Assembly (NCBI GenBank): GCA_025738555.1
Contig: JAOVFP010000016.1
Location: forward strand, 2,418,001-2,482,000
Reading direction: 5' to 3'
Source: Cyathus striatus
Lineage: Eukaryota > Basidiomycota > Agaricomycetes > Agaricales > Nidulariaceae
Length of the DNA: 64,000 bases
The notes beneath the pieces are model-generated. The model saw only the letters and a list, made by a program, of their open reading frames with translations. It was not told where the DNA came from and made no database searches. Positions within the stretch are counted from its first letter, which is position 1, and each line of letters begins with the position of its first letter. A program made the position numbers and the translations under genes. This document shows, piece after piece, positions 24,762-64,000 of the stretch.

Positions 24762-27700
24762 CTATCCAAATAGGCCAGGTGAATTTGTTCGTGTTAACAG
24801 TTCGTTCAGATTTCTTACAACCGCTCCCGCCCCTTCCTTCACTTTCTCCCTATCTTCTTCTACAACCTTGGACAACAACTTCGTCTCGAAGCGATCAGGA
24901 TGCCATCGTCGTATGTGATCCTTTATCCGATCTTTCAACGGCTTATCTTTGTCAGGCTGGTATTTGGAGTTGATGTATGCGCTGATACTGGTGTACGTTA
25001 TATCTTCCGCTGACGATGGTTTCTTGAGCATAGGCCACGGGAAGTCATACCAACGAAGTTCTTCAAGAGTAGGCAGTCTCGCCCAGACCCGCTCATGATA
25101 TTCGATGAGCTGCACAACATCATCTGCCGAGTGCTGTGACATCTTGGAGATCCTGGCCGCCTCAATTCTTTCCTGCTCTCTTCGGAACTGCTCGTGCCTC
25201 TTCTGATTCTGTTCCTCCTGGCGGCGTCTCCATTCAGCTTCAGACAACGGCGTGGACGCACTCGGTGAGGCACCTGTAGCAGAGGTACCATTGGCATTGA
25301 ATACACCTGAACTAGTAGACGAAGCTCTAGGTTTGGTAGTACCTGACCAGGCGGCTTGTCCAGCGTTGGCAGTGGACGCTCCACTTGCAGTGGTTGCTTT
25401 AGTGGACGTTGACCACGCGGAGCCGGTGCTGCTGGTTGACCAAGCAGAATTCCAAGTAGCAGTGCTACTCGCACTATTTCGGTCAGCGGAAATATTCGCA
25501 GATGAACTCCGTTGGGGGGTCTTTGTTGAACTAGTATTAGATGAATTGATGGCAGCAGACCAAGCAGCTTCGGGATCGAACGAATCGGGAAGTTTCCTCT
25601 CTGCCTTTCCCCGAGCCTCATCCTGTGCGCGCTTGAGCTCTTGTTCACGGGCAGCCTCCTGTTCGCGGCGAAACCGAGCCTCTCGGCTTTGCTTTTCCTG
25701 TGCATCCTTTGCCTGTCGTTCTTGTCGTTCCCGATTTTGCTCAAAACGGTTCCAGCTCTGCTCTGCTTTCTTCCGCTCCTCTTCTTCACGTTGGCGGTTG
25801 CGCTCAATTTCTTCCTCCTCCACCTTTCGCAACCTTTCCTTCTCTCTCTCCTCCTTCTCCTTTCGCAATTTCTCTCTCTCTCTCTCTTTCTCCTTTTCTT
25901 CCTCTAAACGCAATCTCTCCTCTTCATCCAAACGTACCCTTTCCTCCTCGTCGAAACGCAACCTTTCCTCTTCCTCTTCCTCATTCAACCGTAATCTTTC
26001 TTCCTCTTCCAAGCGTAAACGTTCACGTTCCTCCTCCATACGTAAACGCTCTTTCGCGCGCGCTCTCTTAGCGTCCGCCAACCTGTCCTGCTCCAAACGC
26101 AACATTTCGGCATCTGTCTCCGTATCCTCAGCATCTGGCTCTGTGTAACCTTTACGCCCCTTCTGCGGTTTCTTCTGCATAGCTTGTCTCTTGAGCTGTT
26201 CGGCCTGCTGGGCCAGCCTGTCCTCCCAGTGTTGCAACTCTTCCGCCCTCTTCCGCATCTCCTCTTCCAACTTTTTCACTGCCTCCTCTTTCCTTGACAC
26301 CTCTTTTTCTTTCCTCGTTATCTCCTCCTCAACGCGTCTGGTCTCTTCCTCTTTCTTTCTCGCTGCCTCCTCCTTCTGCCTCACTTCCTCCTCCTTCTGC
26401 CTTGCTTCCTCCACCCTTTTCCTCGCCTCTCTCTCTTTCTCACTCGCTTTCTGCTCCCTTAACTTCTGCTCTGCAGCCATCGCGCGAGATTCAGCCTCCT
26501 TTAAACGCGCCTCAGTCTCACTCTTGCGCATCTCTAACTGCTTCCGCCGAGCCTCTATAGCTTTCTTCTGTGCCTCCATCTCTTTCATCTGTGCCTCCGC
26601 CGTCTTCTTCTTAAGTGTATCCTCCATGAACATCAACTCCTCCTCTTCCTTCTGAAGGGTCTCCTCCTCGAGTCGATTTAATTCCTCATATTCGTCGTAA
26701 TCTTCGATATCAGAATCCACTTTCGGGGGCGGCTTTTTCCCACCGAACGCACGTTGTGCAGGAGAATCGACACGATCACCAATGTAAGATGACGGAGCCC
26801 ACATCGGCGGGTGAAATTGATTTGAGTATACACGAGGATGGTCGTGACGTGACTCTGACGGACGCCGACTGTTATTCCACTCCTTCCAGCTATCCATTAC
26901 AGGCTCATCAACAACAACATTAGGGGAGCGTCGAGGTACGGATATCGGATTACTTGCAGGGGAAGAATATAAGTGTCGAGAATACCCATCTGTTTCAAAA
27001 GGCAATGAGTTCCACAAACGAAAGAGTATGGAATACGATACTGACCATCATCATTACGACGTCTTTCTTCCTCTCTCTTATAAGACGACTGACGGGATGG
27101 CACAGGTCGTGAATTACCATATGCGTGATCCGGCGTTTCATCGAGCAGTGGACGGCGTCCATATACACGGGGATCATCATACATAGTTTCCTCGTCATAT
27201 TCGTCATCTGACCCATGGTCTCTGCGGGATCTCGATGCTGAAGGGGGAGTAGAATACCTTTCTGGTGGACGACTCGCAGACAACGGGCTGGCATTGTGAG
27301 GCGCAGCGTATCTCCCAGTTTGACGGTCAATATCTTCAGAGAAAGAAACGGATGGCTTTGAGGCTACACGACGTTGAGAATTCTCCGCCACGCCAGGCTG
27401 ATAAGGGCGTTCTTCATGTACTGCTCCGGAAGGCGAGCGAACGAAAGGTTGAGGCCCTGCAGTAGGAGGCCTGTCGTAATAGGCCTTAGGAAGAGGTCGA
27501 GGTGGAAGATCATCATCCAGAGAGTCGAGGTGTACTGGCTTTGGGTGGGGACGACGTTCCCCTGTGGGCCGGCTACTATCGCTATTGAGAGAAGCCTTTG
27601 AAGCGACCCTCCTTGGGGAAGACGTTCCTTGATAAGGATTTGAAGTAGGATAAGGACTTCCGGGTGATTTAATGGGTGAAGCTACGTAGTCTTCTGCATG

Positions 27701-29026
27701 ACGGACGTCTTCCCTCGACACCTTCGGCCGGACTTGCTTCTCGCGATCGCGTACATTGTCATGTGGACTCCAAGGCTTAGCACTCTCATTCTGTCTCTCC
27801 TCCCGTGGAAATCGACTAGAGTTGGCGGAAGTAATTTCAGGGCGCTCCGGGATCGTCTCAACGATGGAAGGCCGCCTACCAGCGGATCCGTTAGACTGCA
27901 GACTTGCCGTGCTATTCCGACGGACAGGGGTCACAGATGGTCTAGAGGTTGCTGCATCCTCCTCAGGTGTCACTGAAGGTTTCCAAATCGTAGGTATGGG
28001 TTTCGGAGGTGATCGAGCAGAGTTTCTTTCCGATATCGAACCTGACCGAGATGGAGGTTCGGTAGGCCTGAATTCAGTTTCCCGAATTGGCTTCATTTCC
28101 ATAGAAGGCCTTGGGCGCGGCTCGCGCCTCACCATCGGTTCATCTTCTGTATCGACCTCCGAATCATGTTCGGCGGAAGGTGGTGGGGCCCATGTCCGTG
28201 GAACAGGTGGCCGGCCCCCGCTCGACTTGCGTATTGATTGCCCGACGCTGGCCGTGAACTCATCTTTGTCTCGAGGAGGTGGTGCAGCGTTATCAGATGT
28301 GTAGCGAGGCTTCGTCGATTGATCGTACGTCCGCTGCAGGGGAGGTTCCTGGAGCTGCGGCGGAGGAGGTGCTACTGGTGCAGTCCGCTCGGCCGCAGCT
28401 CTTGATGCCGATGAGCTTGAAGTATGTCTGCGGTCCTCGGTGGGGCTACTTGACGGGCTTGCAGAAGGTCCAACCTCCGGTGCTGTGGGTCGTTTGATGT
28501 CCTGCGCTGGCGGTGCCTGCTGAACCCCAGCACCCTGTGCAGCCCGCTCAGCAGCAGCTCTTGATGCTGTCGAAGTGCGCCTACGTTCCTCGATAGGGCT
28601 CGTGGTTGGACTTGCAGAAGTACCACCCTGATTAGTGCGCTTAATTGTCTCCATGATATCCGTCTGCTCTTGTTGAAGAGCATGAGTCCATCCTGAACTA
28701 ATAGGTATCCCAGCGACCCAACGACGTTCATTCCTCTCGCGCTCCAATTCAGCATGATATGATTCTGTTGCAAGTTTGCGAACGTTCCGCATTATATGAG
28801 CATAGTCGGCTTTGAAGCGGTCGCGATCCTCGTCTGAGATACCCGGCTGTCGAAGACTTTTCTCCAAGTTATCCTTCGCATCCTTCACCATAGATTGAAG
28901 GCCCTCCTCAATACTCTGCTTCAGCTTGGCCTTCCATTCTTCGTCGGGCTCAATATCATGACCATCGGCGCGTTTAGGGAAATCCGGGGCACTTGATGTC
29001 GGTGCATATGCGGTCGCAGTTGACAT
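24762..29026 (-). CDS. Long charged coiled-coil protein with C-terminal J-like HPD region (1402 aa)
   Basis: Two exons, 27046-29026 and 24762-26989, are joined across a 56-base intron (donor GTCAGT, acceptor AACAG) that restores the frame as ...RRRNDDGYSRHLY. The ATG at 29024-29026 begins MSTATAYAPTSS. Residues about 1-660 are disordered and Ser/Pro/Arg-rich. About 760-1100 form a long Glu/Arg/Lys coiled coil (EEARQKEEEVRQKEE type heptads). About 1130-1240 are Ser/Thr/Trp-rich (AWSTSSTGSAWST). The last about 130 residues hold DFPWPMLKKPSS and then RIKDHIRRWHPDRFE, an HPD-bearing helix pair like J domains and the C-terminus of IkBL/NFKBIL1 proteins. If J-like, it could contact an Hsp70, but the domain is short and unproven. 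Rearranged pieces of this gene reappear at 59603-62665 on the other strand. Confidence 0.8.
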
Positions 29027-31828
29027 CGAAGGTGGGGAGACTCAGAGAAGATAAGTATAAGGAGTGCAGATCTTCTTGTAGAGTTGTACGGGGAAGAAGA
29101 ATGGTGGATGGTGGAAGTAGGGAGAGATTCGGGAGGAGGAGGTGAGCCGATGGTGTGCGAGCCCCTCTGTAATCAGCACGGTTCACGGGGATGCCCTGAA
29201 TGCCTCATGTTCAGTACACGCGTTCAAGAAGAATGTATTCGGTTGCATGTTGAGACTTACACTTTGAACGGTACCTTGCACCGAAGGTAAAGTCAGCGCT
29301 CGTGTCGCTGGTAACGTCGAGGTCGTGGGCGACGACGTAGAACGCGTAGTCCTGTTGTTGTGGGTTGTTGAGCCCAATGTACTGTAGACACTTTGCTACC
29401 CCCGGATCTTTACTTCCGATCGCTTATCTTATCACGTCTCTTTCACTAACCACCATCCTTGCAAAACTCAACTTGAACTACTGCTCTCAAATTTCAATTC
29501 TACTTCACCACAAAGCAAACATACTCATCAACGCCCACTGCAGCCTACCTCGCATCTAACTAGAACAGTCTAGTCGACACGAACAAGGCACTCGACAGAT
29601 AAACTCACTCCGCCCAATTTGAGCTTCTTCCTTCTCCTTCTTTAGTTCCCTACTCCTCTCTACGACGTATGGTGAGAAAACACATGGTCTCTGTCAAGCA
29701 CTACGCTCTCCTTACCTCTCCCCCCCACACCCACTTTCTATTGTATTCTGTGAGCTATATTCATCGTCGACGATAAGTCAACTGCTGTCAATCATTTGCA
29801 GACTCGGCTAGTACATAAAAGCTAATCTACTATATCGTATATCGTATGATATATACTATCATCCGGTGTCTGGAAAACTGCACAACACGCTTCGACACAT
29901 CGTGTTCCAGCAGATGTCGCCATGCACACACCAATCCAACCGCTACACCACGACTCGTCAGCGGATATCACTCTATTAGCACACGTAAAACTGCGCATCG
30001 TGCCTACACAATTTGGCTTCACGAACCCAGCGACATTGGTATGATATCATGAGAGGTGCGTCCGCATCGGATAGAATACATGGGTATACAGATGTGAAAT
30101 TCAAAGAAGAAAAGACACGCTGCATCAGCACAATCTCGGACGGGATAAGTCAAGAACACTGAAGAAAGAACCCAAGCTCACGAGACTGCATTCCCCCGCA
30201 TAGCGGTGCCAGTAGTAATTAATAAAATAACCATCGGAGTCGAGTGTTGCATGCTTGCTCACATGATGTGCACGGGTTGATGCTGACCTCGATCGTTGAT
30301 GGAAGCAAGATGGGAACCTCCGAAAGTTGAAGGTGTGGCATGGAAAAAGGAACTCGTGGATCGCCGGGCTTCAGAGAGATAATGTGCCATCGATAAGGTG
30401 GGTTCGACCAGTAGCAAGGAGAGTCTTCGAGGACGCCAGTTGCATCATATACCCACAGCAATTGAATATTACACTGGAGAGCATCCCATAAAAAGCACTG
30501 TGAATGTGGCATTTGGCATCGCCGCGGCCGGAACCAGATCGCAATGGATATCAGCCTCCAGGACGGTATCACATCCACTGTTCTTCTTCACCGACATACT
30601 CAGGAACATTCGCTGAAGGTTATGACAGTCCTAACATGAGCACGCTCGCACTGGAGCTTTAGTGATTCGTCGGAACAATAACCCAATAGGACTTGTTGAG
30701 TAGCATGTTTACAGAACGCGAGTGAAGCATTCGAAGAGCTATACCTGGAATCAGCAGCAAGCATCAGAGCAACGCGGCACTTCCTCATTAGGATCATAAG
30801 TACTGCGCCATAGTGCTAGAAAGCTACTAGCTAGCCAAAAACCTAGAAGGGAACGACAGAGGCACCAGCATTTCCGGTCGGATGGAAGATAAGAATCCAT
30901 AACGGAAGCAAGGCGCGACTGCGTAAAAAGCAAGAAGGATAATAGGACAGAGGAGGATCAGGAGGATCGATCAAGCAGCTGGCATTATAAAAGTACGTCT
31001 AGGACCGGATAAGATAGAGCGAGTGAGGAAGAAAGCTCTATCCGCAGACGTCGAAGAGGAGAATCGATGCACGTACAAAGACATGAAGAAGAAAGATGAG
31101 AAGAAAGGCAGCTTAAAAAGTAATCAGTAGGGAGAACTGTTTATATTAGAGCGTAAAACATCGAGGCTCACGCAAGGCCCGCGTCTTACGCCACCTATCG
31201 CACACAGCCGGTGATCAGGACATCGAGCTATCCAGAGAAGAGGTAGACACTTTCGATCGTGTATTGCGAGCTGGGGTAACGTTACTTGACAGAGGCAGCT
31301 GCCACAGGGACGGTAGATTCTTACGATCTGGAGCGAGGTTCGAGGTTGCGTGGGCTGAGCTAGATGAAGCTTCGAATACCATGCAGCGAGATTGCGAATA
31401 TGAACGTGAGTAGAGTACCCTACCGGCGGCGGGAAATAAAGTGTAGTTCTGCGATAATACAGGCCGCAGATTGCGAAGCTGAGTGCCGATAGCCGGGTTT
31501 CCTTCCGAAGGCAGCGTACCAGCTGAAGAGGCTTGCGAGTAAATCGCTGGCAGGCTAGGAAATGGTAGGTCTATAGCTGGGGACTGCGGGGTGTTGCTTA
31601 ATACTGCGCAGGAATAGACTGCAAGGGTGCAGAGAAGTCAACATTCTAGGGTATTGCTTTGATTGAAGACCAAAAACGACCGCAGCAGGGACGTCGTGAG
31701 ATTATGGCGAGACTCGTCAGAACAATTTGGGCGAAGAAAATGAGATGTACATGAGTACAAGGCGAGTATAGTTGTATGACGTTGACTGGAATCGGAGGTG
31801 GATAGGGCAGGAAAGATATATCCAAAGA
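29027..31828. other. Promoter side of the coiled-coil gene and gene-free DNA
   Basis: The first few hundred bases contain the 5' flank of the minus-strand gene, including pyrimidine/purine-biased tracts (about 29620-29720). Further right, open frames such as 30219-30578 (minus, 119 codons) have no motif. I see no RNA gene. Confidence 0.4.
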
Positions 31829-43904: not shown

Positions 43905-45316
43905 TTAGACTACCCCAACGTGACGCCATTTCTGTCCACCTCCGCGTTCAATTCCTACTTCATTGTCAGCTGCCCTTTTATTTTTGTACCTCTTCTTGCT
44001 CTCTTTGCATCCACTAGGAACTTTTCTGCTAGAAACTTTGCTTTGTTTCCATTCACTGGGGATAAGTCGTACTACCTCTTCAGCATCAATCCTTTGCTCC
44101 GGCACATAGCAAAAGATTCTGTAAATGAGACTCCGAAACGCATTAACCTCTTCTACTCTGAAGCCCTTCTTATCTCTAATACCAATACCTACTATTGGCA
44201 CCATCCGGTTCGTTCCTCGATACACGCCATTTTCCAGGAAATATTCCGCACGTTCAGTCCACGCGGTCCACCACTTATCCGGAAGCCTTCCAAGAGTTTT
44301 AACCATCATCGGAATCATATCCTTCTCTTGATTGTAATTGGATCCGAACGGAGCATGTTTCTTGTTCAGAATCATGTATATAAGGACTCCGAGCGTCCAA
44401 ATATCCATAGACGGAGCAGGAGAAACGATATCGTGGAAGAGGATTTCGGGAGCGCGAAGCAAGAGAGGCATGTTAAAATTTAACGGCTTGTTGGACTGAT
44501 GATGTGAACTGCATAAGAACGACTCTCCAAAATCACAGATCTTGACATGAACGTTAGCAGAAGAGAGGCAAATTTCGATTACGGGATATCGGCAGTTTCG
44601 ATGATGAACTATCGTTGTAGGACGGTGTATGGAAGGGGGGACTGGATCGTCATTATTCCAATACTTGATGGGCTCAATCAATGGTTCTCCATATATACGA
44701 TTCAGCTCTGTAAGGGATGCGTTTTGAAGTTTAGAAGAGTAGAAAAGCACGTTTCTAAGGTGTAGATCTACAACGGAATATTGATAAATATTTAAGAGCG
44801 AGGTCTATACAAGAGTGATCACTTACCACCATGAATAATGCCGCACTTATGAAGATAAGCAACGCCAAGTGCAACCTGTGCAGCAAGTTTCTTGGTTACA
44901 TCCGGCGGAAAATGATCATGATTATTTCCATAGAAATCTTCGACCTTCTCGTTCAGATTTATACCAAGAATTTCAGTAACAATACAGTGATGCGTTCCAT
45001 TTGGTCCTTGAATTATGAATGTGTCGAATATGCGGATCACATGGTCCTTGCCAGGATGGGAGTCCCCTTTCTCCTGCTGCTGCTGAAGGTGTCGCGAGAT
45101 GGAGAGTTCAGAAGAGTTGGCGGATGAATTAGCAGAGAGAACTTTCAGAGAAGCAAAGCGTTTCAAAAGCAGATCTTCAACGAGCCATATCGTGCTGTAG
45201 CCTCCGAAGCCAAGCTTGTTGATGACGCGATAGCGGTCTTTGAATGTATCGCCGACATAAATGGGATGAAAACCGCCTACGTAGTAGTGCTCCGCACTAT
45301 CGAATGGAAGTCCCAT
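43905..45316 (-). CDS. SRPK-like protein kinase, paralogue 1 (450 aa)
   Basis: Two exons on the minus strand (44827-45316 and 43905-44767) are joined over a 59-base intron (GTAAGT..TTGTAG). The chosen start is the first ATG (MGLPFDSAEHYY). Kinase motifs are in order: glycine loop KLGFGGYSTIWLVED, ATP-binding Lys in ASLKVL, hinge after IVTEILG, catalytic loop IIHGGDLHLRNVLF, ICDFGES (DFG), LRAPEI (APE) and DIWTLGVLIY. The domain order and the wide insert between catalytic loop and DFG fit fungal SRPK-like kinases, which phosphorylate Ser/Arg-type proteins. The usual HRD is HGGD, so the Arg is missing. A basic C-terminal tail (SKKRYKNKRAA) is absent from the paralogue at 53114. The 6-kb transposon lies 200 bases upstream of its start codon. 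Confidence 0.88.
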
Positions 45317-45509
45317 TTGTAAGTTAGTGCGCAAACGTAGATAAAAGAGAGATGTTGAAGAGTGTTGCTGTTGCGAGTGGAGCGAAGGCTGGCCGAAGGT
45401 TGTTAATATATATGTAACATACCTGTAAATATGTACAAACTTCAGTCACCGAATCCCGACTCTTCAGAATGCATCACGTGATCCTTACAAATTTAAAGTC
45501 GAAAACGAA
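45317..45509 (-). promoter_or_regulatory. Remaining proximal promoter of SRPK-like kinase 1
   Basis: About 190 bases separate the kinase start codon from the transposon insertion. The segment gaaggttgttaatatata..atgtacaaac is also found upstream of kinase 2 (about 54516-54571), so it is an ancestral promoter segment shared by the pair. The insertion has pushed all more distal promoter DNA 6 kb away. Confidence 0.55.
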
Positions 45510-45518
45510 GCAGTGAAC
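45510..45518. repeat. Target-site duplication, left copy (9 bp)
   Basis: gcagtgaac at 45510-45518 directly precedes the left inverted repeat and is identical to 51564-51572, which follows the right inverted repeat. Confidence 0.92.
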
Positions 45519-45760
45519 TAGACCGGTAGCCGGTCGGTATCGTGACAAGTCACGTTATATGAACGATTGTATCGTATCGATATACCGACCGGTCCAACTG
45601 GTCAGATTTGAAGCGTCTGTCCCTTACGTCCCCAAAAATTTCCTTTTTTGGATTCTCGGCTCTCTCGCACATCGCGTTGACTCTTTCCGTTCTCCGTGCT
45701 CCTCTCCTCCCCCTCCTCCATTCTCCCCTCCTCCACTCTCCCCTCCTCCGCTCTCTCCTC
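45519..45760 (+). repeat. Left terminal inverted repeat (242 bp)
   Basis: It matches the reverse complement of 51322-51563 with only a few substitutions, at least some of them C/T (cgtgacaag left, catgacaag right). The outer part contains short internal palindromes (ccggtagccggtcgg; ataccgaccggtcc). The inner end is a C/T minisatellite of a ctcccctcctccact unit in 3-4 copies, ending ctctcctc. Homology stops exactly there. Confidence 0.93.
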
Positions 45761-45803
45761 TTATGTACTCTTCATTTGTTTACTACTACCAATTACTACT
45801 TCT

Positions 45804-48237
45804 ATGAGTCTCGTCAACCTCTCACTGCCTGAAATTCGAGCTCTTTCAACCATACAAGATGCAAAATCCCTAGTTGAGCAAGTTATTCCTATTGAGTGAA
45901 GACTACGCGATGAATTTTGGAGTGAGTACAACGAGAAACACATTATACATGGACTCAAAGCCTGTCTTTTGGTATTCGTGGCCTCAAATGGAGTGATAGT
46001 ACCTCAGGAGTTTCAGATGAAGGCGACGCTTGCCCTGTTGGCTGGAAAGGACTCTCTGGTGGATGTCGGTACAGGGTATGGCAAAACCCTGTGCATAATC
46101 TTGCCATGTCTACTTTTTCCAGAGGAGATTTCACTGGTCATCTCCCCTTTGAAGCGACTTCAAGCATTGCAGCTACTCGAGCTTCAGAAGTATCAAATCA
46201 CAGCAGTATCCATCAATGAAGATACACCGAAAGATGATGTACTTTGGAAGGTATGTATGACATGTACTCGTCTATACTTACTACATTTTGTTATAGGATA
46301 TTGAGAATGGACACTATACGGTGCTACTCGTGCAACCTGAGCAACTTTTTGTCTTCAATGGTCACTGGCCCAGACTGTCTCGACTTCTGAAGAAACAAGG
46401 GTTCTACTTGCGAATAAAACGTGTTCATGTTGATGAAGCACACATGATATATACTGCTGGTCTTCCTCATTATGGACTACCTGCATTTTGCCCTGCGTGG
46501 GGCCGCCTTGGTGACTTTCATATTCGCATTTCCAGCAAAACCATCTTTCAAGTGCTATCTGGTACACAGCCTCCTCATATCAAGAAAGTGATCATGGAAT
46601 CCCTTCATTTCCAGCCCTCGAAAATATCTTCCATCAAAATCTCAAGCAACTGCCCTAATATTTCTTATGCAATACATGAAGCACCACTTCCACTTTCTGA
46701 CCTTCGAAATCTTGACTTCCTCATTCCCTCTCCATACCCTGCTGGTTTCATACTGTGAAAATTAATTGTTTTTCATGATAGCATTCCATCAACACAAAAT
46801 GCAAGTGATCACATGAACAGCCTTCTCCCTTCAGACCTTCAGAACAAAGGGACTGTGCGGCACTACCACAGTGGCATGTCCACTGAGTACTTGAAAACCG
46901 TCTTTGAAGACTTTGCATCTCCTACCGGAACCTGTCGAATTTTACATGCAACGGAAGGAGCATCCACTGTGCGACTTTATAATTAAGTATATCAGACTTT
47001 GCTAAATAATTATACAGGGTTTGGATGTGCGTGATGTTTCAGCTGTCATACAATATGGCACACCATGGGATCTTCCTACATGTTTGCAAAGAGGTGGTCG
47101 ATGTGGCTGTGATGGAACAACAGAATCAATATTTCTTATTTTACATGAACCATGGGCGAAAGAAATTGATTTATCTGTGGCACAAATGATTGACAATTGT
47201 AGTGGGGTGGATATGTCAGATCCTGATAGACCGAACATTGGAATATTGTCTGACAAGTCAACAAAGCGAGATTGCACTGGAATCGGCATTCTAAATGCCA
47301 TTCAAAACTCCCATGAACATTGTTTAAGGCTTCTTTTTAATAAGGTGAATGGAGACGAATCTCCAGATGGTTGTTAAAATGATTTTGCTTAAGTTTATTT
47401 GTTGACAGTACTTCAGTATCATTTACAGGTCGTTTTTGTTGCAATAGTCCAGTGCATAACTCGGACAATTGCAAATTTTCATTCCATCACTTCTTTCCAA
47501 ATCAACTACTCTACAGTGACCTGGAATGCAAACTAGTGTACTATGGTGATCATGACGACCCTACTAGGCGACAGCTGGAGTCACATCGCAATGATCTCAA
47601 GAGAAAGCAATTTAACTCTCACCACCCCAAACCTCAACGCACCTCTTTAGTTTCCTGGCTTGTGGACTGGAGACATAGAACATGGAAATGTGATTCATTG
47701 TGCAGTGTTCGACCACCTGCTTTCATACTCAGTGATAAAGAGATTCATATGCTTGCACAAACAAATTCTGATGACATAATTTCACCAGAGTCTATAGGTA
47801 TCTTGCTTGAGAGGCCAGAGGAGTGGGTAAGCAAGTGGGCAATGAGTATTCATCAGTGCATTAGCAGCTTCGACCAAGAACTAGTGAAGATTACTGAAAG
47901 AGTTGCTATGGAGAAACAGCAACAGCGAAAGCGAGCCAAGATTGATGAACAGCAGCGACAATTAAAAGCCAACAAGAAGCTCTTTTTGGAAACATCAAAG
48001 AGGCATGAGGATGAAATTTCAAGTCAATTTGAAAATATTGATGCAGATACAGCTTGCAAGGAGTATCAGAAGAGGTTCTCTGAGTTTGTTGCTGAGATGC
48101 CTGTACAGTCAATTCAAGTGCAACACCAAGCTGCTTTTCAGCGTGAATCTGAAGACCTTCAGAAACAGGTGAAGGCACATCTGGAGAAGCTAAACCCAGA
48201 GGAGCTTAGACAGCTTAGACAACTCATGTTTGATTAA
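45804..48237 (+). pseudogene. RecQ-like DNA helicase of the transposon, interrupted by two TGA codons
   Basis: Four exons (45804-46250, 46297-46968, 47018-47369, 47417-48237) stay in one frame for 764 codons, apart from TGA at 45897-45899 and 46756-46758. RecQ motifs are in order: TGYGKT (Walker A), VISPLKRL (Ia), VDEAHMI (DEAH box), LSGTQPPH (III), KLIVFHDS (IV), ATEGAST-GLDVRDV (V) and QRGGRCGCDG (VI). Motif VI normally ends GRDG; here the arginine is Cys (codon 47108-47110). After it come Cys-containing segments (HCLRLLF, GRFCCNSP), as in the RecQ zinc-binding region. The last about 200 residues form a charged coiled coil ending ELRQLRQLMFD. Expanded families of such helicases are known in mushrooms. 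The intact ancestor would unwind DNA 3'-5' by ATP hydrolysis, in transposition or replication of the element (inference). Confidence 0.88.
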
Positions 48238-48297
48238 ATTCAAGTTTGTATATTATGGTAATAGCATGCAATTGAACAATTTATATTCCATATAATG

Positions 48298-51200
48298 CTA
48301 GCATTCCTGTGAAAGATTGGAAATGTCTATTGTATCTATCGCATTTCCTAATGTATCTTTATCAATGGTAAAGTCAGTAGGTTGTCCAGCCACAAATTTT
48401 CTGAATTTCATATTAAAGGTGTTCAATGTTGATGACTTGAGTTTTCGAGACCCCTCCTGAATGAGATCACATACAGCAATGACAGTTTCATTACCACTTC
48501 AGCTGTTCTTGAATATCTGTAAACCTTCTTCCTTTGATTTCTTCGCAACACGCCAAACTAAGTCACTTGTTTCGGCTTTGGAATGGTACCAGTTTCGGTG
48601 GGACAGCTCTGTAACTTCAGCAATCTTTTTCTTGATTTTGTTCAGTTCACTGATAGATGCCGATACATTTCCCAAAATATCCCATGTCGTCTCAACACCC
48701 TTTACTCTAATCAACTCCTTTATATATAATATAAGATGGAATATGCGGGTAAGACTTATTGGAGTTAAAACATACCTTTACCTGTCCCACTGTATGTTCC
48801 ATATTCAAATCTGTAGCCATCCAGTGACCCGGTTGCCCTGATAGATTAAAAAGAAGTGAATCACGCATAATGTTACTGTATATTATTTTTCATCAGAATA
48901 TCCAATATATTAAACTTCTAGAGATAAGTACTCACGCAAACACTGGAGTCCAGATGTATTTGAGGTTGATAAGAAGATGCAGAATTTCGGTGCAGTAATT
49001 GTTTCCCCCAGCAGCTCGAAACATCATTGCCAAGTGCATCAACATATCTTCAACTCTCCCAACATCACCATCTCAAATTGCTGTGACAGTTTCAAGAAGA
49101 TATAGTAGGTCACGTGTCATTAGCCTGGTGTTCTGACTTGTTTTATCCTTTTCTGGGTCCAAGTGGGATGAATAAATTGGTGGGGGGACTGTAGGTGTCT
49201 TCTTACTTCCAGCGGGCCCAGCTTTCTCAGTTTGCGGTAATAAAATATCATCAGCATCCAGTGGTGAGTCGTCATCAGAGAAACATGGTGGTAAGGGAGT
49301 GGCGAATTCATAGGTCTTCTGGTGTTGGATTTTTCTTCGCAAATGTGGTTAATGTATCACCATTGCGAGCACAAAGAATTTGTAACCCATTCAGCACAAG
49401 TCCTTCCAAAACCTGAATAAGGCTTGTGAGGAGCGTGTGATAGTCAGGCTTTTCACCAGACAGCCTTGACTTCTCCAACAGAGCAAAAAAGTACTGGAGC
49501 GATCCCTTTTGCCCAGTAGTCCCGCGATGAGTAGTGAGTAATGCCCTTGAAAGATTCAAACACAAATGGAATAGTCTGATGCCTATCTGGAAAACGAGCC
49601 GCTGGTGATAGGGATTGAGGTCTGAAGCTCGGAGGATCTGTCCAGAGCGAATTCGAGCATTGGTTAGCTGATCATTAATGGTAGGTATTGCATATTTCGA
49701 AAGTTCTTCTGGTGTTCGCTTAAGTAATGTAAGGTATATCTCATCGTGGTATGACAGATTCCCCTGGGTTGAGGCCTCTTCCGTTGTTGATATACGAAGT
49801 GGGAAGAACTCAGTTACTTGTTGGGCAGAGGTAGTGTGTCGCTGTTTATGCTGCAGAGAAGGACATGTTTCATACTGGCTGAAAGACTTTGAGTACTTGG
49901 TGAGTGTTCTGATAACATGAATTTGCATCTGAAAAAATAAAGATTCGCACTGGTCTTCGGTAGGTATAAGGTCCAGTTCAAATCTGAGACCATGGAGGCT
50001 AGCCTCTTGCATATGAGCCAGCATTGGACCTAGCAACATATCTTCTTGATTCACATGGTTAAGCTTGTATACGATTCCTAGTGTTCCGGAGGTAACTTTG
50101 CTTGGAGTAAGGGATCCACATTGTTCTACGAAAATTGAAGTGCTCATGTTGACGTTGTCATAGCAGAATGTATGAGGCCCTTCAGTTACAGACTTTGCGA
50201 TCATCATATGCTGATCTCCAAGCATCTTGACAGTATCCAGTATGGACTGATAACAAGGGCATAGTCCACAATGATGAATAGCCTCTATGGTTTGACGAGA
50301 GGCACCTGAAGCCCAGAGAAATAGTCCAAATTCTGCTATAAATCCGAGACACTTATTTGAGTGCTGATATAAAAGTTGCCGGGTTACCGTATTGCAAAGC
50401 TATTCGAAAATTAGCAGGGAGTATATATTTACAAGCATCGCAGGTTACTCACATATTCAGGAGATTTCTCAGTGTTCTTTTCACGCTGCCGTTTACTCTC
50501 TGCAGCTGAACGAAGAATTATTTGTGTGAATGGCGCTTCATTCTTGAAGTCAATGGAGTCTCTGCTGTCGATGTAGTCAGAGTCAATGTCTGCTAAACCT
50601 TTCATGCGAGTAAGATCATGCAGTCTATCCATTTCATCTGAAACAATATCTAAGACCGATTCGAGGCCAATTCCGTGTTTCAGCCATGTTTGAAGTCTTC
50701 GTTGTCCATCTTTTGAGAGGGCAATGGTATTCATGATATCAAAAAACTTCTCGCTACCATCCTTGTAGAAACGAGATCTGTAGAAGCTGTATTCGGTGTT
50801 ATTGTCGTCAAGGATGTGTTGGATGAGGTCAAATGGACCAATAGAATCTTCTTTCAAGATCTCCAGTGCAGCATTTACTTTCTCAGTGATGTTTTTTCTT
50901 GGTGCTCGTCTTTTGGGTGAATCAGGTGGTATTAGCTCATGCGGTGTGCTAAACAATCTTCTAGTACGACGTAGGCAGGCTAAAGGTGAACAAACCGGTT
51001 CTCCTGGTTCCCACTTGCCGGTGGTGGTGCATTTCCAATTTCCCTTCTGCCTATCCCATGTTTGCCTTTTCCCCCTCCTCTTCCTCCTTCCTTCCTTCTA
51101 TCTCATCCCTGAGCATGACCTGAGCTCCTTCTATCACTAGAAGAGTCGAAGCGAAAACGCTGTGTAGCTTGCCACTGTTCTGGTGGTTTGCTATTGGGCT

Positions 51201-51321
51201 GAATGTTGCATGGCTGGGTAACGTCACTGAGCACAACTTGTTGCTCATATGAGGCCAAACGAGGTCTTTTGCGCGAGGGCCTATGCTTGGGCAAGGAAGC
51301 AGTATCTTGATCCGAGGGCAT
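48298..51321 (-). pseudogene. DUF6589-domain protein of the transposon, with frameshifts and two TGA codons
   Basis: On the minus strand the ATG at 51319-51321 starts MPSDQDTASLPKHRPSRKR. The frame breaks near 51100 and resumes as WKCTTTGKWEPGEPVCSPLAC, a Cys-containing, possibly metal-binding N-terminus. Exons are about 50453-51321, 48936-50399, 48776-48875 and 48298-48717; introns are 53, 60 and 58 bases. Typical DUF6589 segments are seen: FGLFLWASGASRQTIEAIHHCG, HTFCYDNVNMS, SGTLGIVYKLN, VGRVEDMLMHLAMMFRAAGGNNY, LHLLINLKY, NIMRDSLLFNLSG..GHWMATDLNMEH and TSDLVWRVAKKS. Damage: a small frameshift near 49310-49320, TGA at 49073-49075 and TGA at 48499-48501, after which coding sequence continues to TAG at 48298-48300. 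The biochemical role of DUF6589 is not known to me. Its place in this element makes it a candidate transposase or accessory factor. Confidence 0.85.
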
Positions 51322-51563
51322 GAGGAGAGAGCGGAGGAGGGGAGAGTGGAGGAGGGGAGAATGGAGGAGGGGGAGGAGAGGAGCACGGAGAATGGAAAGA
51401 GTCAACGCGATGTGCGAGAGAGCCGAGAATCCAAAAAAGGAAATTTTTGGGGACATAAGGGACAGACGCTTCAAATCTGACCAGTTGGACCGGTCGGTAT
51501 ATTGATACGATACAATCGTTCATATAACGTGACTTGTCATGATACCGACCGGCTACTGGTCTA
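51322..51563 (-). repeat. Right terminal inverted repeat (242 bp)
   Basis: This is the inverted partner of 45519-45760. The C/T minisatellite lies immediately upstream of the DUF6589 start codon (51321), the same position relative to that gene as the left repeat has to the helicase. CT-rich tracts are typical of fungal core promoters, so the repeats probably drive both genes inward. Confidence 0.93.
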
Positions 51564-51572
51564 GCAGTGAAC
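51564..51572. repeat. Target-site duplication, right copy (9 bp)
   Basis: gcagtgaac, identical to 45510-45518. After it the sequence continues as the ancestral upstream region of kinase 1 (actgaatataca..ggcagagagtatt), which is also present upstream of kinase 2 (about 54925-55090). Confidence 0.92.
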
Positions 51573-53113: not shown

Positions 53114-54402
53114 TCAATTCCTGGCCACATCCTTCCAACTACTAGGAATGAGTCGTACTACCTCCTCGGCATCAACCCTTTCCTCTGGCGCATAGTTAAA
53201 CATCTCGTACAACAGACCCCCAAACGCACTGTCCTCTTCTACACTAAAACACTCCCTCCCTACGATACCAATACGTATATACGGCACCATCTGTTTCGTT
53301 GTTAGGCAAATGCCACTTTCTTGGAAGTATTCAGCACGCTCAGCCCAAGTGCTCCACCATTTATCTGGAAGCCTTCCAAGAATGACAACCATGCGTTGAA
53401 TCGCTTCCTTCTCTTTACCGAAATGCGATTCAAACGGAACATGCATTTCGTTCATAATCATGTACATAAGGACTCCAAGAGCCCAAATGTCCACCGAAGG
53501 AGCGGGATAAACCATATCGTGGAAGATAATTTCAGGAGCCTGAAACACGAAAGGCATATTAGATGTTAATGGCTTGTTGGACTGACGATATGGAGTGTAG
53601 AAGGACGATTCTCCGAAATCACAGATCTTGATGTGAATATCAGAAGAAAGGCAAATCTCGGCCATGAAAGGTTGGCGGCCTCGATGGGCTACCGTGGCAG
53701 GACGATGTATGGAAGGGGGAACTGGAGTCTTATCATTCCAATACTGGATGGGAAGAATCGGCGGTTCCCCATAAATACGGTTCAGCTCCGTGAGAGACGC
53801 GTTTTCGAACTCAGGAGAGTAGAAAAGCACGTTTCCAAGGTGTAGGTCTACAACAGAATATTGGTAAGTGCTTAAGAACGTGGTGTATAAAAGCTTAAAG
53901 ATAGCTTACCGCCATGAATAATGCCGCACTTATGAAGATACGCAACACCAAGCGCAACCTGTGCTGCGAGTCTCTTGGTCACATCCGGCGGGAACCTAAA
54001 ACGGTTTTTTCTATAGAATGCTTGTATGTCGTTCGCACTCAGATTTAAACCAAGGAGCTCAGTAACAATACAGTGGTGCGTTCCATTTGGTCCTTGAATT
54101 ATGAATGTGTCGAATATGCGGATCACATGGTCCTTGCCAGGATGGGAGTCCCATTGCGCTTGCTGCTGCTGAAGGTGTCGCGCGATGTCCAGTTCATAAG
54201 AAACGGCTGACGAGTGAGCAGAAAGCACTTTCATAGAAGCAAAGTGATTCATAACTAGGTCTTCAACGAGCCATACCGTGCTGTAGGCTCCGAAGCCAAG
54301 TTTGTTAATGACGCGGTAACGGTTGTTGAACTTGTCGCCGATGTTCATGGGATGAAACCCACCTACGTAGTAGTGGTCTGCACACTCCAATGGCAATCCC
54401 AT
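53114..54402 (-). CDS. SRPK-like protein kinase, paralogue 2 (408 aa)
   Basis: Two exons (53910-54402 and 53114-53847) are joined over a 62-base intron (GTAAGC..TTGTAG) at the same position as in paralogue 1. The ATG at 54400-54402 begins MGLPLECADHYY. Motifs: KLGFGAYSTVWLVED (glycine loop), ASMKVL (Lys), IIHGGDLHLGNVLF (catalytic loop, Arg of HRD missing), ICDFGES, FQAPEI and DIWALGVLMY. It is highly similar to 43905-45316 over its full length, including long identical runs such as DHVIRIFDTFIIQGPNGT. It lacks the basic C-terminal tail of paralogue 1 and ends SSWKDVARN. Both genes point the same way, so they arose by tandem duplication that included upstream DNA. Likely a Ser/Thr kinase; substrate unknown. 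Confidence 0.9.
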
Positions 54403-55084
54403 GCGTAAATTGATGCTTAATAGTATGTAAATTAAGAAGAGCTACGGTTGCAACGTTGAAGCTTAAGAGTACTAGTAAATACTTAAGTTAAGTAGTGTTG
54501 ATGCAGGAAGTGGGGCGAAGGTTAATATATATATACAATGTATATTATCTGTAGATAAACATGTACAAACTATTATGTCTGGTCCCGCCTCCGAGTCAGA
54601 GCCATTCACTTTTATATCGCTATTTAGTTGTCTATGAATCAATTATTTATAATAACAACATATGCATTTGATAAGCTACCAGCGGTTTCCTGTACATATT
54701 TATCTTGAACTATTATTTATTCCTATTACATGTCAAACCAATGTCAAACAGTGGTTGAAACTTGAAGTTCGGCGTTCAACCCTTTTCCCCAACACAACAT
54801 TCAACAGGTCTTCTTGGCAGAAGGGGCTGCTTCATACCGTGAACTAAATTCTAATAAATTTACAATACAAGCATTATATACGTGGTCATTAATGGAATAT
54901 GTATATTCTACTAGTAGCTACGCATGGCAGAGAGTATTGGATATAGCAAAGACAATTGATCAAAACGAAGTACTAGCGGGGTAGATATACATGAATAAAA
55001 ATAATCTGAGTTAGCTTGTCGTTAGTCGTAGTCTCCTTATCGAGACTCAAGTGCTTACGGTAAAACTATCTTTCTCAGTTGTAT
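54403..55084. other. Upstream region of kinase 2, paralogous to 45317-45518 plus 51573-52320
   Basis: It contains gaaggttaatatatata..catgtacaaac near 54516-54571 and the block ggcagagagtattgg..gacaattgatcaaaa..atgaataaaa from about 54925. The same blocks occur in the same order upstream of kinase 1, interrupted there by the transposon and the MITE. No gene is seen inside. Confidence 0.7.
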
Positions 55085-59602: not shown

Positions 59603-62600
59603 ATGTCATATGCGACCATGCATAATGATGATACAACGCATCTCAAACCTATCATGACTGATGCTCGATCACCTATGAAACGCATACCTGCAATTTGGAC
59701 GCCCACTATCACACGCGAGGAGGATGCAGCAGCCTCCAAACCATCTTTATTTCCTACACACGGGAATAGAATGGCACGCGCGCGGTCGGCTGAGTCTTCC
59801 AGCAAGCTACCTTCCGTCTTTAAGATGACCCCGACGCGTAGTGAAACTGGCCCCACCACCTCTGAGTTCGAAGTAGGTGGCTGGCAATCAGCTCGCAGGA
59901 CTTCATTCGGTCATCCGAGTCTACCAAAGCCGGATGGATGGGGCTGCGATGTCGAATATGAATATGAGGATCGTCAGGCGCCCACATCACAAGACACCGA
60001 GAAGGAGTGGTTGTGGGGGGTGGAGGAGGTAAGAATTGAGCGCAACCGCCAACGCGAAGAAGAGTGGGGGGGGACCGGGCAGAGCTGGAACCGTTTTGAG
60101 CAAAATTGGGAACGACAAGAACGACAGGCGAGGGGTACGCGGAAAAGGCGAGGCCGAGAGGCGCAGGCAAAGGCAGAGAGGAAGCGTCCCGATTCGTTCG
60201 ATCCCGAAGCTCCTTGGTCTCCTACCATCAATTCATCTAATGCTAGTCCAACAAAGACCCCTCGACGGAATTCATCTGCGAATATTTCCGCTGACCGAAA
60301 TAGTACAAGCAGCACTGCTGCTTGGAATTCTGCTTGGTCAACCAGCAGCACCGGCTCCGCGTGGTCAACGTCCACTAAAGCAACCACCGCAAGAGGAGCG
60401 TCCACTGCCAATGCTGGACAGGCCGCCTGGTCAGGTTCTACCAAACCTAGAGCTTCATCTGTTAGTTCGGGTGCCCACCCAAAGCTAGTACACCTCGACT
60501 CTCTGGATGATGATCTTCCACCTCGACCTCTTCCTAAGGCCTATTACGACAGGCCTCCTGCTGCAGGGTCTCAACCTTTTGCTCGCTCGCCTTCCGGAGC
60601 AGTACACGAAGAACGCCCTTACTGGAATAACAGTCGGCGTCCGTCAGAGTCATGTCACGACCATCCTCATGTATACTTAAATCAATTTCACCCGCCATTG
60701 TGGGCTCCGTCATCTTACGTTGGTGATCATGTCGACTCCCCTGCACAACGTGCGTTCGGTGGGAACAAGCTACCCCCGAAAGTGGATTCTGATGTCGAAG
60801 ATTACGACGAATATGAGGAATTAAATCGACTCGATGAGGAGACCCTTCAGAAGGAAGAGGAGTTGATGTTCATGGAGGATACGCTTAAGAAGAAGACGGC
60901 GGAGGCACAGATGAAAGAGATGGAGGCGCAGAAGAAAGCTATAGAGGCTCGGCGGAAGCAGTTAGAGATGCGCAAGAGTGAGACTGAGGCGCGTTTAAGG
61001 GAGGCTGAATCTTGCGCGATGGCTGCAGAGCAGAAGTTAAGGGAGCAGAAAGCGAAAGAGAAAGAGAGAGAGGAGATGAAAAGGGCGGAGGAAGCAAGGC
61101 AAAAGGAGGAAGTGAGGCAGAAGGAGGAGGCAACCACTGCAAGTGGAGCGTCCACTGCCAATGCTGGACAAGCCGCCTGGTCAGGTTCTACCAAACCTAG
61201 AGCTTCATCTACTAGTTCAGGTGCATTCAATGCTACTGGTACCTCTGCTACAGGCGCCTCACCAAGTGCTTCCACGCCGTTGTCTGAAGCTGAATGCAGA
61301 CGCCGCCAGGAGGAACAGAATCAGAAGAGGTATGAGCAGTTCCGAAGAGAGCAGGAAAGAATTGAGGCGGCCAGGATCTCCAAGATGTCACAACACTCGG
61401 CGGACGATGTCGCGCAGCTCATCGAACATCATGAGCGGGTCTGGGCAAGACTGCATACTCTTGAAGAACTTCGCTGGTTTAACTTCCCGTGGCCTATGCT
61501 CAAGAAACCATCGTCAGCGGAAGATATTACGTACACTAGTATCAGCGCATACATCAACTCCAAATACCACCCCAACAAAGATAAGCCGTTGAAGGACAGG
61601 ATAAAGGATCACATACGAAGATGGCATCATGATCGCTTCGAGACGAGGTTGTTGTCGAAGGTTGTAGAAGAAGATAGGGAGAAAGTGAAGGAAGGGGCTG
61701 GAGCGGTTATAAGAAATCTCAACGAGCTATTAACACAAACACGTCCCTTTGTCTTAGGGTCAACGTCTTTGGAAGAGGAAGAGGAGAGATTGCGAAAGGA
61801 AGTGGAGCCGGAGAAAGAGAAAGAGGAGAAGAAGGAAAGAGTGCGAATGGAGAAGGAAGAGAGAGAGGAGAGGTTACGAAAGGTGGAAGAGGAAGATGAG
61901 GAACGGAAGAAAGCCGAACAGAACTGGAACCATTATGAGCAAAATCGAGAGCGACAAGAACGACAGCCAAAACAGTCAAAGGATGCACAGGAAAAGCAAA
62001 ACCGGGATACTCAGTTTCGCCGCGAACAGGAGGCTGCCCGTGAACAAGAGCTTAAGCGCCCACAGGATGAGGCTCGGGAAAAGGCAGAGAGGAAGCGTCC
62101 CGATTCGTTCGATCCCGAAGCTCCTTGGTCTCCTGCCATCAATTCATCTAATACTAGTTCAACAAAGACCCCTCAACGGAGTTCATCTGCGAATATTTCC
62201 GCTGACCGAAATAGTGCGAGTAGCACTGCTACTTGTAATTCTGCCTGGTCAACCAGCAGCACCGGCTCCGCGCGGTCAACGTCCACTAAAGCAACCACTG
62301 CAAGCGGAGTGTTCACTGCCAATGCTGGACAAGCCGCCTGGTCAGGTTTTACCAAACCTAGAGCTTCGTCTACTAGTTCAGGTGTATTCAATGCTACTGG
62401 TACCTCTGCTATAGGCGCCTCACCAAGTGCGTCTACGCCGTTGTCTGAAGCTGAATGCAGACGCCGCCAGGAGGAACAGAATCAGAAAAAGCAAGAGCAA
62501 TCCGAAGGGGAGCGGGAAGGAATTGAGGCTGCCAGACTCTCCAAGGGTCAAGCCACCTGGTCTAAAACCACCAAACCCAGGATCTCGTCTTCTAGTTCAG

Positions 62601-64000
62601 GTGTATTCAATGCTCATGGTACCTCTACCACAGGAGCCTCGCCGTTGTCCGAGGCCGAGTGGAGGCACCTCCAGGATGATATTGGGTTTGGTGTAGGTAC
62701 GCTAGACAATGAGACTGAAAAAGAAGAAAGAAGAGATTCTGGAGACACTGACTATGACTGGGATGAAGATCTTGCGGCAGATGAAAGCGATGTGTCCGCG
62801 GTACAGCGGTCCAAGTTACAGTGGTCTGAGCTAAGCAGAGAAAAGGATTCTCAACGACTTCACTTGAACAATGGAAGTGGAACAGGTGTCGGTGATGTTT
62901 TACTTAATGAAATAAATTGGAGAGGCTCCGATGAGTCGGACTTATTCTTGGATGCATTTGATGTTTTTAAGACCGTCTTTTCGGACAAAGTCAAGTATGG
63001 AAAGCTTCTACAACTTGAGAAGCCTACTGCACAGTCGCTTTTGGATGTAATGCAAACGGTGGGTGTTTTGATTTCATTAGCGAGGAAGTTATATTAGAAT
63101 TGATGAGAACACTGTTCATGATGCAGGTTCTGGATCATGCGATCACCAGTGCATTGGGTCCGAAGTTCGAAAAGCCGCTGTTGAAGGCCATGCTACGGTT
63201 ATCAAAACAATCTGCATTGTACCCTAGTTCTTACATTCTTACTGGAATAAAGCGGGACGCATATCCAGTTACAAGTGGATACTTCGGAGAGATATTCAAA
63301 GGCGAGATCAACGGCCGAAATTTAGCGCTTAAAGTTTTTAAACTTTACGCAAATGAGATGGATAAGATAAATGATTTGTTCAAGGCAAGAATCAATTTTT
63401 TGTTCATGATGAAGGCTCTAATTCACGGTACCGTGCTTAGGGATTCTACAAGGAAGCTATTCTGTGGCGATATTTAGTACACCCTAATCTATTGCCGTTC
63501 TATGGGATTTATCAACTGGGAGATACCGGTGGGAGGATATGTCTAGTGTCGCCCTGGATGTCCAACGGAAATATTTGTCAGTATCTCCGACGATACCCTG
63601 ACACAAACCGTCAACATTTGGTATGCGTTAGTTCATCCTGTCACGCCGTAGATAATAATGTACAGCTACAAAAGGTTATGGATATTGCCAGAGGAATTTC
63701 GTATCTTCACGGCAAGTCAATCGTACATGGTGACTTAAAGGGGGTAAGCTTCATCGCTGAGGCGTTGACCACAAGTTAACCATTTCTGTATTTTTTCTAG
63801 GCGAACGTACTCGTATCTGACAGCGGAGTAGCCTGTCTTGCGGACTTCGGACTTTCCTCTGTATACATTGACACGCCTTCATTGGCATGGGGCACCAACA
63901 ACAGCTCTGTGGGTAGATCGACAGGAACGCTCAGATGGCAGGCTCCAGAGCTCATTGGTCTCGAGGACTCTCCCCCTGTAAAAGGGACAACAGAAAGTGA
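59603..64000 (+). CDS. Chimeric protein: shuffled coiled-coil/J-region pieces fused to a TKL protein kinase; 3' end outside window
   Basis: Exon 1 (59603-63058) is open for over 1,150 codons. Its first about 1,020 residues are rearranged, repeated pieces of the gene at 24762-29026, with a J-like region that reads HHD and not HPD (61625-61633). Then comes a unique acidic stretch (SGDTDYDWDEDLAADESD) and a kinase N-flank (TAQSLLDVMQT). Exons 63127-63384, 63441-63620, 63666-63743 and 63801 onward encode the kinase: YFGEIFKGEI (glycine loop), LALKVF (Lys), FYKEAILWRYLVHPNLLPFYGI (helix C and beta 4), IVHGDLKGANVLV (catalytic loop, HGD), LADFGLSSV (DFG) and GTLRWQAPEL (APE). Introns are 68, 56, 45 and 57 bases; that at 63385-63440 has a GC donor. 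TKL kinases of this type are expanded in mushrooms. The end of the kinase domain lies beyond the edge. Confidence 0.82.
60031..62665 (+). repeat. Rearranged duplicated segments of the 24.7-29.0 kb gene
   Basis: Order in this gene, with approximate parent location on the minus strand: 60031-60472 (parent about 25310-25810), 60474-60621 (parent about 27395-27545), 60622-61130 (parent about 26390-26885), 61131-61741 (parent about 24790-25385), about 61770-62540 (parent about 25140-25910 again) and 62548-62665 (a third, more diverged copy of AWS.TTKPR..SSG). The segments are 75-95% alike by eye. Joints fall inside charged or Ser-rich low-complexity sequence, and the reading frame is kept at each joint. 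Confidence 0.85.

What the first reader, a model, noticed from the sequence alone, without database searches (positions are those of the whole stretch)
45519..51563. Complete TIR transposon encoding only a RecQ-like helicase and a DUF6589 protein
Seen: 242-bp inverted repeats, a perfect 9-bp target duplication, and two convergent genes filling the interior. Known: RecQ-like helicases and DUF6589 proteins are both numerous in mushroom genomes, usually annotated as unrelated host genes. Inference: both expansions could be cargo of one transposon superfamily, with DUF6589 as a possible new recombinase. This is the best candidate for an undescribed system in the window.
Basis: partly seen in the sequence, partly recalled or inferred. 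Interest (0 to 1): 0.88.

Follow-up and report, generated by a model that had tools for sequence, protein, structure and literature searches.

The report
Helicase-carrying mushroom DNA transposon
[quoted passage not shown] helicase-carrying transposons like it were already known.

Summary
A 6,045-bp element (45519-51563) has 242-bp inverted repeats (5 mismatches), a perfect 9-bp duplication and two convergent genes, RecQ-type helicase and DUF6589; both are broken by stops. In the same genome 13 of 13 fetched pairs of this repeat have perfect 9-bp duplications, and the four gene-bearing ones carry both genes. Of eight loci of other subfamilies, six have inverted repeats and five of these a 9-bp duplication. 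82 of 93 DUF6589 clusters have a convergent helicase within 5 kb, 1.8 expected. Both proteins co-diverge (r=0.95) and show dN/dS below 1. Two DUF6589 subfamilies conserve a D-D-E triad, and models of both match DDE transposases best (Hermes, P element). DUF6589 is thus most likely the transposase and the helicase its partner, not cargo. Helicase, 9-bp duplication and fungal host fit AcademH, a published lineage, so the system is probably not new. The new point is the role of DUF6589, a word found in no paper of the searched library. Homology to Academ transposases could not be tested.

The parts
45510..45518 (.). left target-site duplication GCAGTGAAC
45519..45760 (+). left terminal inverted repeat, 242 bp, begins TAGACCGGTAGCCGGTCGGTATC
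45813..48237 (+). RecQ-type SF2 helicase gene (DEAD + Helicase_C), four exon-like blocks at about 45813-46250, 46297-46965, 47018-47371, 47419-48237; at least two in-frame stops
   Evidence: family assignment on the L009 copy
48304..50950 (-). DUF6589 gene (PF20231), inferred DDE transposase; blocks at about 50950-50432, 50399-49311, 49204-48935, 48759-48304; at least one in-frame stop and a frame change
51051..51401 (-). open frame with a counterpart at the same place in L009, L010 and L011; likely 5' part of the DUF6589 gene, overlapping the inner end of the right repeat
   Evidence: query d0
51322..51563 (-). right terminal inverted repeat, 242 bp
51564..51572 (.). right target-site duplication GCAGTGAAC

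Best explanation
The element is a decayed copy of a cut-and-paste DNA transposon of the AcademH kind. SHOWN by sequence: long inverted repeats, 9-bp target duplications, a conserved convergent two-gene interior, related copies in the genome both with open genes and deleted, co-divergence and dN/dS below 1 for both genes, a conserved acidic triad, a DDE-like predicted fold. INFERRED: the DUF6589 protein is the transposase. It binds the long repeats, cuts at the element ends with an RNase H-like D-D-E site (D253, D417, E649 of P0002; D314, D486, E688 of P0124) and joins them to target strands 9 bases apart, which gives the 9-bp duplication. INFERRED and least certain: the RecQ-type helicase opens DNA at the long inverted ends or at the target, or clears the strand-transfer intermediate. 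Small copies that keep little but the ends are moved in trans.
Confidence: 0.82

Rival explanations
1. The same machine, but a separate, undescribed superfamily: DUF6589 is a DDE transposase not homologous to that of Academ, and its RecQ helicase and 9-bp duplication are convergent with AcademH.
For: The homology test could not be run; the word DUF6589 is in no paper of the searched library; end sequences differ among subfamilies (TAGACCGG, TAGTCTCG, CAGGCTCC, CAGTCTCC).
Against: Helicase type, duplication length, fungal host range and annotation as host genes all agree with what is printed about Academ/AcademH.
Confidence: 0.13
2. Passive carrier: the repeats belong to another transposon whose transposase acts in trans, and RecQ plus DUF6589 are captured host genes.
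For: The window copy has broken genes, and deleted copies with the same ends exist (L012-L020), so movement in trans does occur.
Against: No other transposase domain in the interior ORFs scanned (window, L009, part of L011); the pair is convergent in 82 of 93 clusters across subfamilies that are partly only 15-25% identical, and co-diverges; DDE-like fold.
Confidence: 0.03
3. KolobokH: a Kolobok-superfamily transposon with a RecQ helicase.
For: KolobokH is fungal and encodes RecQ (PMC9587614 passage).
Against: Kolobok makes TTAA duplications (passage); here they are 9 bp and not TTAA, and the helicase is a separate convergent gene, not downstream of the transposase domain.
Confidence: 0.01

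Closest known systems
AcademH DNA transposons (Kojima 2020, Mob DNA 11:15; known here only through other papers)
   Same: Encode a helicase; 9 or 10 bp duplications (PMC10045372 passage); reported from Basidiomycota, Ascomycota, Mucoromycota (PMC10799480 passage).
   Different: Homology of DUF6589 to the Academ transposase untested; gene order and end sequences of published AcademH not seen.
fungal Academ copies of PMC6416283 (2019)
   Same: Carry DEAD/DEAH and recQ_fam domains and are frequently annotated as host genes (passage).
   Different: The passage does not name DUF6589 or describe a second gene.
KolobokH
   Same: Fungal DDD/E transposon with RecQ helicase (passage).
   Different: TTAA duplication; [quoted passage not shown]
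hAT (Hermes) and P element transposases
   Same: Best structural neighbours of both DUF6589 models; a long helical stretch between second D and E in the models.
   Different: 7-10% identity; 9-bp instead of the hAT-usual 8-bp duplication (PMC12730594 passage); no helicase partner in them (recalled).

Membership tests
AcademH | element encodes a helicase | tested here: met
   RecQ-type helicase in 4 of 4 gene-bearing elements with these ends and in 8 of 8 other loci (in L061 below Pfam cut-off)
AcademH | 9 or 10 bp target-site duplications | tested here: met
   9 bp in 18 of 19 elements with paired inverted repeats
AcademH | DDD/E transposase | tested here: inconclusive
   conserved triad and DDE-like predicted fold; no chemistry tested, Foldseek alone not significant
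AcademH | transposase homologous to the Academ transposase | not testable with these tools
   I had no Academ sequence; defining paper not held
AcademX | nuclease (XPG, recalled) and 3-4 bp duplications | tested here: not met
   no XPG domain in scanned ORFs, duplications 9 bp
KolobokH | TTAA duplication | tested here: not met
   against the passage
hAT / P element | recognisable family transposase domain | tested here: not met
   Pfam finds only DUF6589 in the gene
Helitron | no inverted repeats, no duplication, Rep/PIF1-type helicase (recalled) | tested here: not met
   long inverted repeats and 9-bp duplications; helicase is RecQ-type

The most novel reading that the evidence does not exclude
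RecQ plus DUF6589 elements are a DDE transposon superfamily of their own, not Academ: an old two-gene machine, with several subfamilies in one mushroom genome that are only 15-25% identical to each other, in which a RecQ helicase has been a constant partner of the transposase throughout.
Probability: 0.13. Interest if true: 0.8.

Novelty: new member of a known kind. Interest (0 to 1): 0.52.

Why it matters
It gives a mechanistic reading to a Pfam domain of unknown function with 93 clusters in this one genome, and suggests that many mushroom genes named 'DNA 3'-5' helicase', 'II DNA helicase' or 'DUF6589 domain-containing protein' are transposon genes, which affects gene counts and claims of RecQ expansion. 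It also makes testable why a cut-and-paste transposase keeps a RecQ partner over deep divergence.

Tried and rejected
Passive-carrier reading: disfavoured. KolobokH, AcademX, Helitron: defining features not met. Precise empty site: a tandem kinase copy matches the left flank up to about 45325 (at 53905-54411) and the right flank from 51621 (at 54948-55056); no junction can be read. Relatives with XPG or helicase fused to DUF6589, which might tie it to Academ: none among the 120 listed of 148 hits; the organisms named there are, as far as I recognise them, all Agaricomycetes. PDB sequence search with the DUF6589 profile: no match. Foldseek: nothing significant. The first helicase query alone paired 28 of 93 DUF6589 clusters within 5 kb, three queries 58, five queries 82; the early low figures were a limit of the queries. 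Papers not held: PMC7165386 and its DOI, the DOI I recalled for Muszewska 2017, PMC3093488. 'Not in print' for DUF6589 rests (and, where it was one of five terms), an open-licence library.

Full report
OBSERVATION. The element spans 45519-51563 (6,045 bp). Its ends are inverted repeats of 242 bp with 5 mismatches, all transitions, flanked by a perfect 9-bp duplication GCAGTGAAC. The end sequence occurs twice in the window, never in 100 shuffles. Inside are two convergent genes: RecQ-type helicase on + and DUF6589 on -. This copy is dead as a coding unit: comparison with L009 shows two stops in helicase blocks and, in the DUF6589 gene, at least one stop plus a frame change; two further stops may lie in introns.

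SAME ENDS ELSEWHERE. The window's genome is held (107.45 Mb, 24 contigs). The left repeat gave 40 scored matches of 140 candidates. I saw 13 pairs in inverted orientation among them; all 13 (window and L009-L020) were examined and have a perfect 9-bp duplication, each a different sequence, and ends that begin TAGACCGG or TAGACCAG. Four carry genes over their whole length: the window, L009 (6,070 bp), L010 (7,147 bp), L011 (7,619 bp); all four have helicase and DUF6589, convergent. L009 has open frames in the blocks used; L010 has a stop in one helicase block and an interruption in the last, L011 several stops. L012 and L013 (about 3 kb) are deleted forms with 5' pieces of both genes; L014-L020 (1.0-1.3 kb) are mostly ends, of which L017-L019 keep a helicase exon piece. 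L021-L024 showed only one complete end and were not counted.

OTHER SUBFAMILIES. PF20231 gives 105 matches in this genome, 93 clusters. Eight loci chosen from other subfamilies were fetched with flanks. L055 and L056: repeats over 400 bp, ends TAGTCTCG, duplications AGACTAGAC and CTGTTAGAG. L059: ends CAGGCTCC, repeats 74% identical, duplication GTTACGCGA. L060 and L062: ends TAGTCTCG and CAGTCTCC, 9 bp, printed as 11 because two more flanking bases match the element's start. L057: repeats 99.7% identical but no duplication. L058, L061: no enclosing repeats found. So 6 of 8 have repeats and 5 of these 6 a 9-bp duplication; with the first family 18 of 19. All 8 have a convergent helicase-like gene (L055 and L058-L062, in L061 below Pfam cut-off; L056; L057). 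L061 and L062 count as clusters without helicase, which shows that unpaired cases were partly missed by distant queries.

PAIRING. With five helicase queries 82 of 93 DUF6589 clusters have a helicase within 5 kb and 86 within 10 kb, and each of these has a convergent one; random placement gives a mean of 1.78 and at most 9 in 1000 trials. One helicase cluster (C2:34621) lies next to a DUF6589 cluster in another orientation; that cluster also has a convergent one. From the helicase side 83 of 132 clusters are paired within 5 kb; what the other 49 are was not worked out, and fragments, host RecQ genes and subtelomeric RecQ genes are likely among them (inference). Other species: 79 of the 93 helicase hits carry a fungal organism name; 48 of these are in species with a named DUF6589 hit (60 named rows typed from the 120 listed of 236); 23 of the 48 lie on a contig of exactly the same length as a DUF6589 hit of that species, 18 species. 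Two pairs have consecutive gene numbers: EST38_g3858/EST38_g3859 and NMY22_g2074/NMY22_g2073.

CO-EVOLUTION. Identity matrices of DUF6589 and helicase for ten loci that I chose (window, L009, L011, L055, L057-L062) correlate with r=0.948; 0 of 5000 permutations reach it. NG86 dN/dS between copies is 0.27-0.41 for L055/L056 and L009/L010, and 0.08-0.18 for L009 against the window, where dS is saturated.

WHAT DUF6589 IS. 60 homologues: D253 60/60, D417 58/59, E649 59/59; other acidic columns are conserved too, so the triad is chosen with the fold in view. A second subfamily (60 sequences) has D314, D486, E688, each at least 90%; the profiles align over 738 columns, E 5e-68, and the three positions coincide. 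In a motif scan of 30 loci the first motif is found in 29; the full triple in 15, belonging to three groups, and not in the other 15. Models: mean pLDDT 86.0 and 87.9; first D in the first strand of the core, second D just after a later strand, E in a late helix behind a long helical stretch. VIA-align: the 13 best rows of model 1 and the 18 best rows of model 2 are all DDE transposases or RAG1; only Foldseek's own candidates were aligned (866 and 992 chains), and the alignment of the triad to Hermes residues was not shown. Foldseek itself is not significant. I take the fold as probable, not proven; catalysis is inferred.

THE HELICASE. DEAD and Helicase_C pass Pfam's cut-offs; best NCBIfam model recQ_fam, E 2e-35, under its cut-off; PDB neighbours WRN, BLM, RecQ. 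Its step in transposition is not shown by anything here.

KNOWN KIND. Papers were seen as passages only. PMC10045372: AcademH makes 9 or 10 bp, AcademX 3 or 4 bp duplications, linked to helicase and nuclease. PMC6416283: most fungal Academ copies contain recognisable domains such as DEAD/DEAH helicase and recQ_fam and are often annotated as host genes. PMC10799480: AcademH in three fungal phyla. PMC8290104: putative nonautonomous Academ insertions in a mushroom. PMC9587614: KolobokH has RecQ, Kolobok TTAA duplications. I therefore file the element as AcademH-like with the transposase homology untested. No paper in the library holds the word DUF6589, so its identification as transposase appears unwritten there; Repbase, which may hold such proteins, could not be searched.

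VERDICT. Real, well delimited, with many relatives in this genome; most of the novelty claimed is taken up by AcademH; the useful new point is the role of DUF6589 and its tight, old pairing with the helicase.

Noticed in passing
43908-45445 and 53117-54441 (-): Two protein-kinase-like gene copies (Pfam Pkinase), 72-86% identical in blocks, lie on either side of the element; the element sits upstream of the left one.
   Followed up: partly
24765-29041 (-) and 59603-63094 (+): Long paralogous open frames in inverted orientation, longest blocks 92-95% identical, no Pfam domain.
   Followed up: partly
G000 C1:8655508, C2:8305416, C2:34621: RecQ-family helicases within about 5-35 kb of contig ends; the first two are not near DUF6589. 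They recall the subtelomeric RecQ helicases of Agaricus bisporus var. burnettii (PMC7473861 passages).
   Followed up: no
L012:2554-3833, L013:2126-3398: The 3-kb deleted elements contain an extra internal inverted piece of the terminal repeat, so repeat ends are rearranged within them.
   Followed up: no
45519-45760 and 51322-51563: All five differences between the two repeats are G or C on the left against A or T on the right, as deamination of methylated DNA would give.
   Followed up: no
L057 (C13), C14:152327, C4:4218062: Very similar copies of one helicase-DUF6589 pair; the copy examined has 99.7% inverted repeats but no target duplication.
   Followed up: partly
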